In this document: in pieces, positions 4,569-12,360 of the stretch
Position numbering within the stretch: position 1 is the first letter of the stretch
How the letters are laid out: the number at the start of each line of letters is the position of its first letter
IMG/VR virus record: IMGVR_UViG_3300033145_000637
Coordinates: 1-45,773 of that record
Length of the DNA: 45,773 nt
Reading direction: 5' to 3' (one strand)
Origin: a virus
Program-made: the position numbers and the translations under genes
The notes under the pieces: generated by a model
The model's database searches: none
What the model was told of the DNA's origin: nothing
Seen by the model: only the letters and a program-made list of their open reading frames with translations

Positions 4569-5090
4569 TTACTTCATAAATATTTTAGGCTTCATTCGCA
4601 GATATGCTTCGCGCTGTTCCTCTTTGAGTGCATCGTACTCCTTGTGTGTGAGGGGTTTGAGGAAAGGTTCTGTGGTTGGGGACTCAATGCCTGTTTCGTC
4701 CTCAATAAAACACATATACATACTGAAACTAACTCGGTTTAGACCAGAGGTGGATTTTACCAGTGTCACATCCGCACCATAAATTTCTTCTGTTCCGTCA
4801 CCCAAAAATAATCCTGTGAAATATTTATGCAAACCTTTGACTGTGTGGCCCGAGGATAAAGAAACAAGGTCCAGGTACAACCAATAATAGTTATTCTGTG
4901 ATTCAGAGCGCAACGGTTTCTTGTTCGTGAGGTAAACGTGACCGACATCACCATTCTCACACCTCAAGTTTAGGTATCGCTGATAGTACAAAGGGAAATT
5001 CAGGACGAATTTTATGTTGCCATCTTTTTGCTTTTTAAAGACACCTGTGAAGTGTTGGGATTTGTATGTTGGGATTGACTTTTCACTCAT
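4569..5090 (-). CDS. NinB-like recombination protein
   Basis: This 173-residue protein has a central pattern, [14 protein letters not shown] followed by LHKYF and later [10 protein letters not shown], with P-T-T-E-P and a Lys-rich end. I associate QN-x-Y plus ST-x-x-L with the NinB/Orf-like recombination-mediator proteins of phages, which act with RecA or annealing proteins on single-stranded DNA. The ATG at 5090 overlaps the exonuclease stop (ATGA) and is preferred over an upstream TTG. The assignment rests on pattern and context only. Confidence 0.55.
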
Positions 5091-6259: not shown

Positions 6260-6967
6260 TTATTCTTTTAGTGAACTTAATTTTAATACACCTGGACCTT
6301 TATCCTCTTTAAGGTTTAAAAATTGATCAATGCGATCCTCGCTATGAAAGAACCACGCAATACCCCTGTGTGAATTTTTATCCATCCACCATTTACTTTT
6401 AGAAAAATTACCAATAGCCTTTAACAAATCATCAGCAGAGTATTCTTTTGAACGAGCATCTATTTTCTTTTTAGAAGATGGTGTTAAGCGAGAAAGCTTG
6501 TTAATTTTTTTCTTGTAGGTAGTATATATATTTTCTAATATAATCTTATCTATTTTTATCTTATCTTCTCTCTTCTTATCTCCTCTTATCTTATCTGGGA
6601 CGGACACTGTACGGACACTCTCCGTACCTTGTTCGTACTCTCTCCGTACTTTCTTCGTATAGTCATCGGAGTATCTCGACATTTTAGGCATATGTAATAT
6701 ACCTTTTTTAAAATTGTTTTTGTCTATCAAGTTTAATTCAGCCATCTCAAATAACATCTCATCAACCTTACCTTCAGGGAAACGAGATCTACTTATAAGG
6801 TATCTTTTCCACCCCTGTTTTTCTGAAATTTGATAAACATCTCCTTTCTCTGCAATTATTTCTGCACATATCCAATACAAACCATAGCCCTCCATTCCAA
6901 ATTTATCAACAAAGGGCTCTATGTTGAAATCTCTATGTGCGTTTGATTGATGTTGAAACCATTTCAT
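6260..6967 (-). CDS. Replication initiation / helicase-loader-like protein
   Basis: The N-terminus (MKWFQHQSNAHRDFNIEPF, then FGMEGYGLYWICAEII) matches the winged-helix domain found at the start of many phage replication or DnaD-like proteins (DUF4373/Lin1244 type). A Lys/Asp-rich linker follows. The C-terminal part (LLKAIGNFSKSKWWM, then GIAWFFHSEDRIDQFL) resembles the C-terminal region of phage O-type replication proteins. It probably binds an origin and recruits host helicase. Its 5' leader contains the structured RNA candidate at 6979-7113, which may control expression. Confidence 0.7.
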   Translation of the reverse strand: MKWFQHQSNAHRDFNIEPFVDKFGMEGYGLYWICAEIIAEKGDVYQISEKQGWKRYLISRSRFPEGKVDEMLFEMAELNLIDKNNFKKGILHMPKMSRYSDDYTKKVRREYEQGTESVRTVSVPDKIRGDKKREDKIKIDKIILENIYTTYKKKINKLSRLTPSSKKKIDARSKEYSADDLLKAIGNFSKSKWWMDKNSHRGIAWFFHSEDRIDQFLNLKEDKGPGVLKLSSLKE

Positions 6968-6997: not shown

Positions 6998-7113
6998 ACA
7001 CGCAAAGAATTTACGAGGCTCTCGATGTGGGCACCAAAAGCAACTCCGATAGGGATTTTTATATAAAAATATTCTTTGCGCATTGTCCTTAAGTTTTTGG
7101 TGCCCAACTCCAT
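6979..7113 (-). ncRNA. Interleaved (pseudoknot) leader RNA candidate
   Basis: Three complementary pairs lie in the order A-B-C-A'-B'-C' along the minus-strand RNA. A is 7106-7095 with 7039-7028 (12 bp). B is 7080-7071 with 7010-7001 (10 bp, perfect). C is 7048-7043 with 6996-6991 (6 bp). A and B alone form an H-type pseudoknot. Two local hairpins lie inside: a perfect 16-base palindrome at 7070-7055 and CGAG-AGC-CTCG at 7024-7014. A promoter-like pair precedes the RNA and a terminator-like hairpin ends it. It may be a cis-acting attenuator or a separate small RNA of about 135 bases. Confidence 0.55.
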
Positions 7114-7119
7114 ACTCTT

Positions 7120-7147
7120 ATAATACATAAATTTTAAAATCTTGCAA
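7120..7147 (-). promoter_or_regulatory. Sigma70-like promoter for the leader RNA
   Basis: The minus strand has TTGCAA (7147-7142) and TATTAT (7125-7120) separated by 16 bases. The predicted transcription start is near 7113, just before helix A of the structured RNA. The -10 matches the consensus at 5 of 6 positions, the -35 at 4 of 6. Confidence 0.45.
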
Positions 7148-7150
7148 AAC

Positions 7151-7438
7151 TTAGTTATCCACTCCTATAAAAAAAGGTTTTCGGAGCTTGTTCCATAGTA
7201 TCTCTACATCAGGATCAAGGAGTCTTTCGCCATACTTACAATCACAGTATCCGCACAATGTAAGACAGTTCCACATCTTACGTTCTTTTTCTGGGTAGTT
7301 GCGCCGGGTCCATATGTGACAAACCCTTAAGTTTTCTGTGCTAGGACATATCCGACAAGTGTAGTTGTCTCTTTTTTTAACTTTTTCTTTCAACTTGCGC
7401 CACCATCTATAGCGTGAAATTCTTGAACTTTTGCTCAT
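7151..7438 (-). CDS. HNH endonuclease
   Basis: This 95-residue protein shows the zinc-bound HNH layout: C28-R-I-C31 after a basic helix (LKEKVKKRDNYT), then V-C-H41-I, N57-C-L-T-L-C62 and C65. HNH nucleases in phages act as homing enzymes, packaging nucleases or recombination nucleases. Here it lies in the replication/recombination cluster, overlapping the winged-helix gene at 7435-7680 (ATGA), far from the terminase. The exact substrate cannot be told from sequence. Confidence 0.8.
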   Translation of the reverse strand: MSKSSRISRYRWWRKLKEKVKKRDNYTCRICPSTENLRVCHIWTRRNYPEKERKMWNCLTLCGYCDCKYGERLLDPDVEILWNKLRKPFFIGVDN

Positions 7439-10545: not shown

Positions 10546-10942
10546 GTTCAATTTTTATTGAATTACCCATTAATAATTTCTCGTATGCTTGGATTTTGCC
10601 AGACAAACGAGCGTCTACTGTTTCATCTTTGACTATCACTTCTTTTTCAACTATTTTCTCAACCTCAATGATTTTTCTGCTTTCAATCATAACACCTGCA
10701 TCAACGTCGTCATTCAAACAATTAAGAAAATCAAGAAGTTCATTGACATCTTTTAAATTTTTGGAGTTATTAATATAAAACTTCCCCATATCATCTCCAC
10801 CATGAATCATTAAGAAAGCAGAGAATCCATCTTTATTCGCAGTAACTGTATCATCTTCGTCTACAGTAAATTTTATATCATTTTTTGACACCCAATCACC
10901 CTTACTTTTTTTAATTTCGTCTAATATATCTTGTCTAGTCAT
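10532..10942 (-). CDS. Hypothetical protein with C-terminal coiled coil
   Basis: This 136-residue acidic protein starts MTRQDILDEIKKSKGDWVSKND and has a mixed alpha/beta first half. A heptad-like segment follows (IIEVEKIVEKEVIVKDETVD) that should form a coiled coil. There is no catalytic motif. It is flanked by overlapping genes on both sides, so it belongs to the early operon. Confidence 0.5.
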   Translation of the reverse strand: MTRQDILDEIKKSKGDWVSKNDIKFTVDEDDTVTANKDGFSAFLMIHGGDDMGKFYINNSKNLKDVNELLDFLNCLNDDVDAGVMIESRKIIEVEKIVEKEVIVKDETVDARLSGKIQAYEKLLMGNSIKIEHGDN

Positions 10943-11351
10943 GTTTAATTGGTACGATTGCGGCGCGCATAGATAACTTCTTTTCTTTGAACGCCTTAGC
11001 TTTTAATTCCCGGCTAATTTTGCCGTCTACGACTAGCTTATCAAATCTGTTGCGGTCGACATCCACAACAAAAGCCTTCTCCTCTAAAATAGAGAGTTCG
11101 TCTTTGGAAGCGTGTTTTTTGATTAGCTTTAAGTCGTAATACCTTTTGTAAGGCTGATCCACACGAATAAAGAAATCCTCGGTCTTAGCCTTGAGAACAT
11201 CTTCGGGTGTAGATTCTTTTGCGAGATTTTTTAAATCAATCTCGGCTTGTGCGACTTCTTCTTCAAAAGCGCTGATGCCATGCTTATCCTTAAGCTGTAC
11301 CAACTTCTGTTTCAAAGTCACATACTCAGAGAGTAGTTTTTTTAACTTCAT
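10935..11351 (-). CDS. Hypothetical early protein with helical N-terminus
   Basis: This 138-residue, mostly charged and helical protein begins MKLKKLLSEYVTLKQKLVQL. No domain is recognised. It is the first gene after the long untranslated region and has the clearest Shine-Dalgarno of the early block (GGGAG at 11365-11361, nine bases before the ATG). The H-type pseudoknot at 11369-11426 ends four bases upstream of that site, so its translation is probably regulated by RNA structure. Confidence 0.55.
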   Translation of the reverse strand: MKLKKLLSEYVTLKQKLVQLKDKHGISAFEEEVAQAEIDLKNLAKESTPEDVLKAKTEDFFIRVDQPYKRYYDLKLIKKHASKDELSILEEKAFVVDVDRNRFDKLVVDGKISRELKAKAFKEKKLSMRAAIVPIKHD

Positions 11352-11368
11352 TTGCTTCTTCTCCCATT

Positions 11369-11426
11369 TGTACCACCCCGGCCCCTTATGAGTGGCGAGG
11401 TGGAATGGTACAGATAGGCATAAGGG
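11369..11426 (-). promoter_or_regulatory. H-type pseudoknot next to the Shine-Dalgarno (riboswitch-like)
   Basis: In the minus-strand RNA, 11426-11419 pairs with 11390-11383 (8 bp, perfect) and 11412-11406 pairs with 11375-11369 (7 bp, perfect). The two stems interleave, with loops of 6, 15 and 7 bases, lengths that fit a real pseudoknot. A competing 5-bp hairpin, CCACC (11403-11399) with GGTGG (11377-11373), would break the second stem. The Shine-Dalgarno GGGAG of the 11351 gene follows after three bases. This looks like a translational switch. I do not recognise a known riboswitch class. Confidence 0.6.
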
Positions 11427-11456
11427 TTAATTAATAAACTAATAATTTTCAACCTA

Positions 11457-12026
11457 TGATAGTTCTCTAAAATCTGGGTAGAGCGAGGATTTGCGCGTTA
11501 GCGTACATTTTATTATTAAACAACTCAACCTATAGTTCATTCTACTTTCTTACCTAAATGACCTCTGGTTAGCTCGCCACAGTCCACTTAGTTTGGTTTG
11601 ATTTTCAAACCTCTCACACTACTTGCGCTAGGCGTGAGCCAGTTAGCTAGACAGTGAGATTTTCAAATTATCTATAAATTAGAGCCACTTCCCGTACCAT
11701 TAATCCACTCAGGGATTACCCCATACAGATTTAAGGTTAAACCAATCAATCAGACCATCCAACTTGAACAGTCCAACTCGCTACTCTCTATCGTCACCCA
11801 GACACTGTCAATATCTTGAGTTATTGTCGAAAGCTTTCACTCTGCGTACTTAGCGGTCGCCAAACCTACCAAGTACATCTTGCAAATCATGGCGGTAAAT
11901 AAAATGAGTCACCTCGCAACACTATGTTTGAACTATCATAGTATGGGGGAGATTCGTATTGTAGCGGTCTCCCTTCATGCGTGTACCTTTTTCGCCACCT
12001 ACCCAGATTTTAAAGAACTACCAACC
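11457..12026 (-). ncRNA. Large structured RNA candidate (about 570 nt)
   Basis: The ends pair in an uninterrupted 26-bp helix: 12023-11998 with 11457-11482, 23 Watson-Crick pairs plus three G-U pairs. Inside are several local helices: 11973-11968/11952-11947 (6 bp), 11944-11937/11926-11919 (8 bp), 11877-11868/11854-11845 (about 10 bp with wobbles), 11718-11713/11706-11701 (6 bp), 11638-11632/11619-11613 (7 bp with one wobble) and 11611-11606/11600-11595 (6 bp, loop AAAAT). No frame of useful length exists on either strand. A promoter ends seven bases before the closing helix. Size, closing helix and phage location recall ROOL and GOLLD RNAs, but I cannot test membership. Confidence 0.6.
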
Positions 12027-12032
12027 TAATTC

Positions 12033-12061
12033 ACATTAACATAAAAGTTACTAAAAGTCAA
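12033..12061 (-). promoter_or_regulatory. Promoter for the large structured RNA
   Basis: TTGACT (12061-12056; 5 of 6 consensus) is followed after 17 bases by TAATGT (12038-12033), preceded by TG at 12041-12040 as in an extended -10. The predicted start near 12026 falls three bases before the closing helix. The -35 overlaps the TGA stop of the gene at 12058-12360. Confidence 0.5.
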
Positions 12062-12360
12062 AAGTTATCCACAGGACACCAGAACCCTACCAAAATTTTT
12101 GAATCCCACTCGAGGAACATCTCACTCACACCACACAATCCATCTCTGTTGCTGTCCGTAATAAAAACACCACCAGGAAATGGTGGGTATGGCATGTATC
12201 CAATGTGTGGGGTTCCTGAAAAGTTCATGATCACAGCACAGCCCTTTGCAGGTCTAGCATTGTTATCTAAGTCAAAAGGTGTCCTTATAATAGGTAGTGA
12301 TGGGATTTTTTCACGAACATACTCTACACATTGAGGTGTGCAGAGTTGTATTTCGCACAT
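12058..12360 (-). CDS. CHAP/NlpC-like small cysteine-peptidase-fold protein
   Basis: This 100-residue protein has CVEYVREKIP near the N-terminus, PAKGCAVIMN, and GTPHIGYM. The spacing of Cys11, the G-C-A-V-I-M strand and His52 follows a CHAP/NlpC-P60 domain. It lies directly after the holin, so a lysis role is likely, although the domain is very short. The frame continues 20 codons upstream of the ATG at 12360 as a hydrophobic stretch (WLLGLILPIVIPIS), like a signal peptide, with no ATG, GTG or TTG before a TAA at 12423-12421. The real start may be an unusual codon, or the ATG may be correct and the stretch coincidental. Confidence 0.5.
   Translation of the reverse strand: MCEIQLCTPQCVEYVREKIPSLPIIRTPFDLDNNARPAKGCAVIMNFSGTPHIGYMPYPPFPGGVFITDSNRDGLCGVSEMFLEWDSKILVGFWCPVDNF

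What the first reader, a model, noticed from the sequence alone, without database searches (positions are those of the whole stretch)
11369..11426. H-type pseudoknot next to the Shine-Dalgarno of the first early gene
Two perfect stems (8 and 7 bp) interleave with loops of 6, 15 and 7 bases and end three bases before GGGAG. A competing 5-bp hairpin would disrupt the second stem and change ribosome access. It follows directly after the large RNA candidate, so the two may act together. This could be a riboswitch or protein-binding leader of an unknown class.
Basis: partly seen in the sequence, partly recalled or inferred. Interest (0 to 1): 0.7.

Follow-up and report, generated by a model that had tools for sequence, protein, structure and literature searches.

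The report
Interleaved RNA stems before phage genes
The predicted RNA knot just before a phage gene is real: eight other stretches of phage DNA carry the same two-helix design with different letters, and the two helices appear to take turns, which probably makes it a small folding switch that controls translation of the next gene.

Summary
The two interleaved stems are present on the minus strand at the stated coordinates, but stems of that size occur by chance about as often in shuffled sequence, so the observation alone proved little. Comparison settles it. Nine sites (window plus eight from uncultivated-phage contigs) share the layout A(8)-B(14-20)-about 3 nt-A'(8)-B', with a start codon 5-17 nt after B'. 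Both helices covary (95.5% of cells paired, 59 double-change cells against 17.8 in shuffles, 0/500). G-U pairs outnumber A-C mismatches 27 to 2, which points to RNA on the coding strand. Randomised sequence (18 Mb) gave no score above 34; eight real sites score 38-50. There is no Rfam match.

With no nucleotides between A and B, the full helices probably cannot coexist: A is predicted to form first during transcription and B to replace it. These phages show no Shine-Dalgarno signal, so "GGGAG" is probably not the point. The most likely role is bistable control of translation start, possibly regulated by a factor. A small-molecule riboswitch or coupling to the large upstream RNA is not supported. 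The structure is well supported; the switching mechanism is inferred.

The parts
11419..11426 (-). Strand A (5' half of helix A): CCCTTATG, preceded by TTAA
   Evidence: Sequence; 8/8 paired with A' in all members of alignment A4, five of eight pairs with changes on both sides
11402..11418 (-).
11391..11401 (-). Loop between B and A' (ACCTCGCCACT); 2-3 nt in all other members
11383..11390 (-). Strand A' (3' half of helix A): CATAAGGG; lies in the loop of hairpin B
11380..11382 (-). Linker GCC between A' and B'; absent in the other members
11363..11379 (-).
11352..11362 (-). Spacer AGAAGAAGCAA between helix B and the start codon (5-17 nt in the members)
10935..11351 (-). Gene presumably controlled in cis: 138-aa protein with no Pfam or PHROGs match; first gene of the operon leading to the replication and recombination genes

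Best explanation
It is a cis-acting RNA element that controls translation of the gene immediately behind it by switching between two interleaved helices. While the RNA is being made, strand A pairs with A' (8 bp), because A' is transcribed before B'. B' and the bases before the AUG are then still open. When enough of B' is out, the stronger hairpin B-B' (14-20 bp) replaces A and places a stable stem 5-17 nt before the start codon. In these phages initiation relies on A-rich start regions without Shine-Dalgarno sequences, so a stem there is expected to lower initiation. The likely result is a new message that is translated for a limited time and then shuts off, or a leader that a phage or host factor holds in one state. 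Shown: both helices covary, orientation fits RNA, position before start codons, order of folding in equilibrium calculations, no SD signal. Inferred: mutual exclusion in three dimensions, which state is ON, and any timing or regulator.
For: Element recovered from IMG/VR with patterns using strand A/A' only; in the five sites so found (window included, G049 first seen by eye) helix B, not used for finding them, is 94.3% paired with 23 double-change cells against 7.8 in shuffles, 0/500. Eight-member alignment: 95.5% paired, covariation score 0.950 against 0.247, and sliding the partners by 1-3 columns drops pairing to 43-57%. Four more sites (G046 twice, G013, G027) lie in phages fetched for portal or terminase homology, not for the motif. 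Null: 18 Mb of second-order Markov sequence, best score 34; eight real sites score 38-50 in 3.06 Mb. 27 G-U against 2 A-C in helix B. A hairpin -7.8 to -11.4, B hairpin -16.8 to -29.1 kcal/mol; prefix folding gives A (P about 0.9 or more in 8 of 9) once A' is out, then B when 6-14 nt past A' are exposed. No SD signal: window 5% against background 12%, lambda control 42% against 15%. The genes behind the element have the most folded start regions, or nearly so, in window, G049, G051, G013 and G027.
Against: No experiment. Equilibrium folding favours B so strongly that helix A might live only briefly; nested-only folding cannot score A together with part of B, so a true pseudoknot (A plus the base of B) is not excluded. 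The window copy is the least regular member (11-nt loop, 3-nt linker, one mismatch) and scores only 32 in the gapless scan. In G053 the prefix fold does not favour A. Transcription starts, host and RNA polymerase speed are unknown.
Confidence: 0.5

Rival explanations
1. Protein-binding translational operator: a phage or host RNA-binding protein recognises the conserved cap (CT-CRYAAGRG) of hairpin B or a pseudoknot made of A plus the base of B, and represses (or activates) the next gene, as gp32 and gp43 do in T4.
For: Strand A core CTT and strand A' core AAG are invariant in the eight aligned members while stem B is free to vary, as expected for a recognition site. Several neighbours act on DNA or look like replication and recombination proteins. 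T4 precedents in PMC3014915.
Against: Downstream genes are unrelated to one another, so simple autoregulation by the encoded protein does not fit; no candidate binder was identified.
Confidence: 0.27
2. Translation silencer of inserted or expendable genes: the stem simply keeps ribosomes off when the gene is transcribed from upstream promoters, like the hairpins before T4 homing endonuclease genes; helix A is a by-product or folding guide.
For: Two members precede HNH/NUMOD4 endonuclease genes; several lie 4-64 nt after another gene's stop codon; T4 precedent in PMC3014915.
Against: Helix A covaries with 100% of cells paired, which a plain hairpin does not need; other members precede replication, exonuclease-like or unknown genes.
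Confidence: 0.13
3. Ligand-sensing riboswitch that uses an H-type pseudoknot.
For: Size and topology resemble small pseudoknot riboswitches (general knowledge).
Against: No Rfam match for the window or the relatives; very few conserved unpaired positions; no common metabolic gene downstream.
Confidence: 0.05
4. DNA-level element (operator, nick site or single-strand DNA hairpin) rather than RNA.
For: Helix A is an inverted repeat with a constrained core; replication genes lie nearby in several members.
Against: Strong G-U over A-C asymmetry towards the coding strand, spacing of the A/A' half-sites varies 18-28 nt, and the start codon always follows within 5-17 nt of B'.
Confidence: 0.05

Closest known systems
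T4/T2 gene 32 autoregulatory pseudoknot
   Same: Phage mRNA leader with two interleaved stems that controls translation of a DNA-metabolism gene
   Different: Lies 67 nt upstream of the start codon, stems stack coaxially, and works by gp32 binding (PMC3014915); here the long stem starts where A ends, reaches to 5-17 nt from the AUG, and the genes differ
T4 gene 43 operator and hairpins before T4 homing endonuclease genes (I-TevI, mobE, segB)
   Same: Hairpin in the translation start region lowers initiation; two members here precede HNH genes
   Different: No interleaved second helix in the account read, and they hide a ribosome binding site (PMC3014915); these phages show no SD signal
Metastable hairpins in the Helicobacter AapA3 toxin mRNA; also the MS2 maturation-gene leader (from memory)
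   Same: Transient helices formed during transcription decide when a message can be translated
   Different: AapA3 uses SD-sequestering hairpins (PMC6733600); here the helices share no strand and would exclude one another by geometry
STAXI motif
   Same: Candidate structured RNA built from a pseudoknot, near genes for DNA-handling proteins
   Different: Repeated two or three times in tandem, often with UUCG loops (PMC2864571); ours is single and not matched by Rfam
Small H-type pseudoknot riboswitches (preQ1-I, SAM-II)
   Same: Interleaved two-stem topology next to a start region (general knowledge)
   Different: No Rfam match; no metabolite gene; no ligand-type conserved loops

Membership tests
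H-type pseudoknot (both helices formed at once) | Two stems interleaved in order A-B-A'-B' | tested here: met
   Nine sites; A4 counts
H-type pseudoknot (both helices formed at once) | Loop lengths allow both full helices together | tested here: inconclusive
   Connectors in the relatives are 0, 2-3 and 0 nt with B of 15-20 bp: judged sterically impossible for the full helices, possible for A plus the base of B; no three-dimensional modelling was done
Known Rfam cis-regulatory RNAs, including riboswitches and STAXI | Covariance-model score at or above gathering | tested here: not met
   No match for the window or eight loci that carry the element; a permissive scan of the window region gave only chance hits
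Shine-Dalgarno-sequestering leader | A functional SD that is hidden by the structure | tested here: not met
   A clear anti-SD match stands before the gene only in the window (-7.3) and weakly in G052, G053 and G049; five of nine members have none; the genomes show no SD signal
T4 gene 32-type autoregulation | Encoded protein binds its own leader | not testable with these tools
   Needs binding assays; unrelated downstream genes make it unlikely as a common rule
Co-transcriptional bistable leader | An early helix is replaced by a more stable later helix | tested here: met
   Equilibrium prefix folding, 8 of 9 members; kinetics not tested

The most novel reading that the evidence does not exclude
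A new class of cis-regulatory RNA, used by phages of hosts without Shine-Dalgarno initiation, in which two helices that share no strand exclude each other by geometry, so that transcription order alone sets a time window for translating the next gene.
Probability: 0.3. Interest if true: 0.75.

Novelty: new variant of a known kind. Interest (0 to 1): 0.6.

Why it matters
Phage leaders that regulate translation are known mostly from hosts where hiding or showing a Shine-Dalgarno sequence is the means. This element recurs in uncultivated phages that show no such sequences, before replication-like, exonuclease-like, endonuclease and unknown genes, with both helices conserved by compensatory changes. 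It gives a defined, testable case of how a message can be controlled without SD, and of a switch whose two states share no strand. It is short enough to test in reporters directly.

Tried and rejected
Chance: rejected by covariation and the null scan. Riboswitch or other Rfam families: none found. DNA operator or nick site: disfavoured by G-U asymmetry, variable half-site spacing and constant start codon position. Joint action with the large RNA: most other members have no such RNA directly upstream. Antitermination leader of the lambda nut or HK022 put kind: disfavoured because several members sit between genes close to a stop codon. Direct DNA and protein searches with the RNA and its flanking proteins found no relatives; relatives came only through portal and terminase. 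A first architecture scan was too permissive and was replaced. Other hits of the A-strand patterns in viral contigs and all nine genome hits lack helix B and were discarded. G045 and G047 have related-looking interleaved stems (GCTCTTG/CAAGAGC) but 92-99 nt from a start codon, and were not counted. The reversed-sequence control is not independent (reversal keeps the pairing) and was replaced by the Markov null.

Full report
What is there. The window is a 45,773-base phage record. Nearly all genes run on the minus strand. Terminase, portal-like, head and tail genes come first, and a leftward operon with a UvsX-like recombinase, a DNA polymerase exonuclease subunit and a replication-initiation-like protein follows. 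Between them lie 706 non-coding bases (11352-12057). The finding is the last part of this stretch, directly before the 138-aa gene 10935-11351.

The observation. Minus strand, 5' to 3': TTAA CCCTTATG CCTATCTGTACCATTCC ACCTCGCCACT CATAAGGG GCC GGGGTGGTACAAATGGG AGAAGAAGCAA ATG. By structure alone such a pair is not rare: 12 on this strand against a mean of 6.6 in shuffled copies, and the fold z-score is -1.76. So conservation had to decide.

Finding relatives. The flanking proteins and the DNA gave no relatives. Portal and terminase alignments gave some 60 related contigs. In one of them (G049) the same leader was seen: TTAACCCTTATG-CGCTTTGTTCTGCCTT-TCT-CATAAGGG-GAGGCAGAGCAGAGCG-GAAAAAAC-ATG. 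Pattern scans of IMG/VR that used only the A/A' strands gave G051 and, with relaxed letters, G052 (CTCTTACG/CGTAAGAG) and G053 (CCCTTACG/CGTAAGGG). All of these have a long stem B that the pattern did not ask for; the other hits of those scans do not, and neither do the nine hits in bacterial genomes. A scan of the related phages by pairing then found four more sites: two in G046 and one each in G013 and G027. In 18 Mb of Markov-randomised sequence the best score was 34; eight real sites score 38-50. The window itself scores 32 in the gapless scan because its loop is longer; it joins the family by its A, A' and TTAA letters and by its helix B.

Covariation. On composite strings that set the strands in register (A, first 14 of B, A', last 14 of B'; eight members), 95.5% of cells pair, 17 of 22 pairs have double changes, there are 59 double-change cells against 17.8 in shuffles, and 0 of 500 shuffles reach any of the five measures; sliding by one column drops pairing to 43-45%. 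With only the five sites found without use of helix B, helix B still gives 94.3% and 0/500. The composite strings were put in register by hand, which leans towards the structure; the slid control and the five-site test guard against that. Helix B has 116 Watson-Crick, 27 G-U, 2 A-C and 7 other cells, so the structure belongs to the coding strand, as an RNA.

Anatomy. Common form: A (8), B (15-20) starting at the next base, 2-3 bases ending in C or T, A' (8), B' starting at the next base, then 5-17 bases and the start codon. The core CTT of A and AAG of A' never vary in the aligned eight. The genes behind it are unrelated: unknown 138 aa (window), a 219-aa protein next to a probable exonuclease (G049), replication-type proteins (G051; G013 with an HTH_36 domain), a protein that resembles phage exonucleases by eye (G052), small unknown proteins (G053, G046b), HNH (G046a) and NUMOD4-HNH (G027) endonucleases. 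In G049, G052, G053 and G013 the stop codon of another gene lies 4-26 bases upstream, so the large RNA of the window is not part of the element. In G053 the upstream gene looks like a capsid gene by eye, so early genes are not a rule.

Shine-Dalgarno. In the window only 5% of genes have a strong anti-SD match upstream, against 12% at random places; lambda under the same procedure gives 42% against 15%. The other phages behave like the window, several with A-rich start regions. The GGGAG before the window gene is therefore probably not a working SD. Against this background the genes behind the element have among the most folded start regions of their genomes.

How it probably works. The A hairpin alone is worth -7.8 to -11.4 kcal/mol and the B hairpin -16.8 to -29.1. 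In growing transcripts A is the dominant fold once A' is out (8 of 9) and is replaced by B when about 6-14 bases of B' are exposed. With no bases between A and B, none between A' and B', and 2-3 between B and A', I judge that both full helices cannot exist in one molecule; A plus the lower part of B could. This makes an early state (A paired, B' and start region open) and a late state (B paired, stem 5-17 bases before the AUG). The simplest reading is a translation window that closes as the RNA refolds, or the same switch held by a protein. Which state is active, and whether a factor is involved, is inference; the calculation is equilibrium folding without pseudoknots.

Comparison with the known. 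The nearest precedents are the T4 gene 32 pseudoknot, the gene 43 operator and the hairpins before T4 homing endonuclease genes (PMC3014915), the metastable hairpins of AapA3 (PMC6733600), and the STAXI pseudoknot motif (PMC2864571). None has this layout as far as read, and Rfam has no model that matches. I file it as an unlisted RNA family of a known general kind: phage cis-acting translation control.

Limits. Nine sites from uncultivated phages; hosts, transcript ends and any ligand are unknown; collection scans were exhausted, so the true spread is underestimated; no member has been tested by experiment.

Noticed in passing
window 11457-12024, minus strand: Large non-coding RNA candidate: the 706-nt gap folds with z = -5.0, has a closing stem of about 25 bp (GGTAGTTCTTTAAAATCTGGGTAG with CTACCCAGATTTTAGAGAACTATC), no Rfam match and no DNA match in 47 related contigs.
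   Followed up: partly
window about 12040-12070, minus strand; L113 about 4740-4790: Both the window and G049 have TGTGGATAA (the reverse complement of a DnaA box) followed by TTGACT and a possible -10, just before the structured non-coding stretch.
   Followed up: no
L113 about 4780-4960: G049 has at the equivalent place a structured RNA of about 190 nt with a strong promoter-like start (TTGACT-16-TATACT) and an intrinsic terminator; possibly a counterpart of the window's large RNA.
   Followed up: no
L124:10134-10200: An intrinsic terminator (GGGAGCGTCT...AGACGCTCCCTTTTT) interleaved with a 9-bp helix AACCGCTAG/CTAGCGGTT in the same A-B-A'-B' order, in an unrelated phage contig: it may be a transcription version of the switch.
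   Followed up: partly
L099:2087 (minus) and L102:17190 (plus): Related-looking interleaved stems GCTCTTG.../...CAAGAGC in G045 and G047, with similar following bases (ATGAGGRGCT), but 92-99 nt from the next gene start.
   Followed up: partly
L118:2850-2895: In G051 the element follows a TATAAT box and a palindrome TTTGTGATA-GTCGT-TATCACAAA that looks like a repressor operator.
   Followed up: no
window 7001-7153, minus strand: Cluster of interleaved repeats (TGGGCACC, CGCAAAGA and complements) in the gap before the replication-initiation-like gene 6260-6967, possibly an origin.
   Followed up: no
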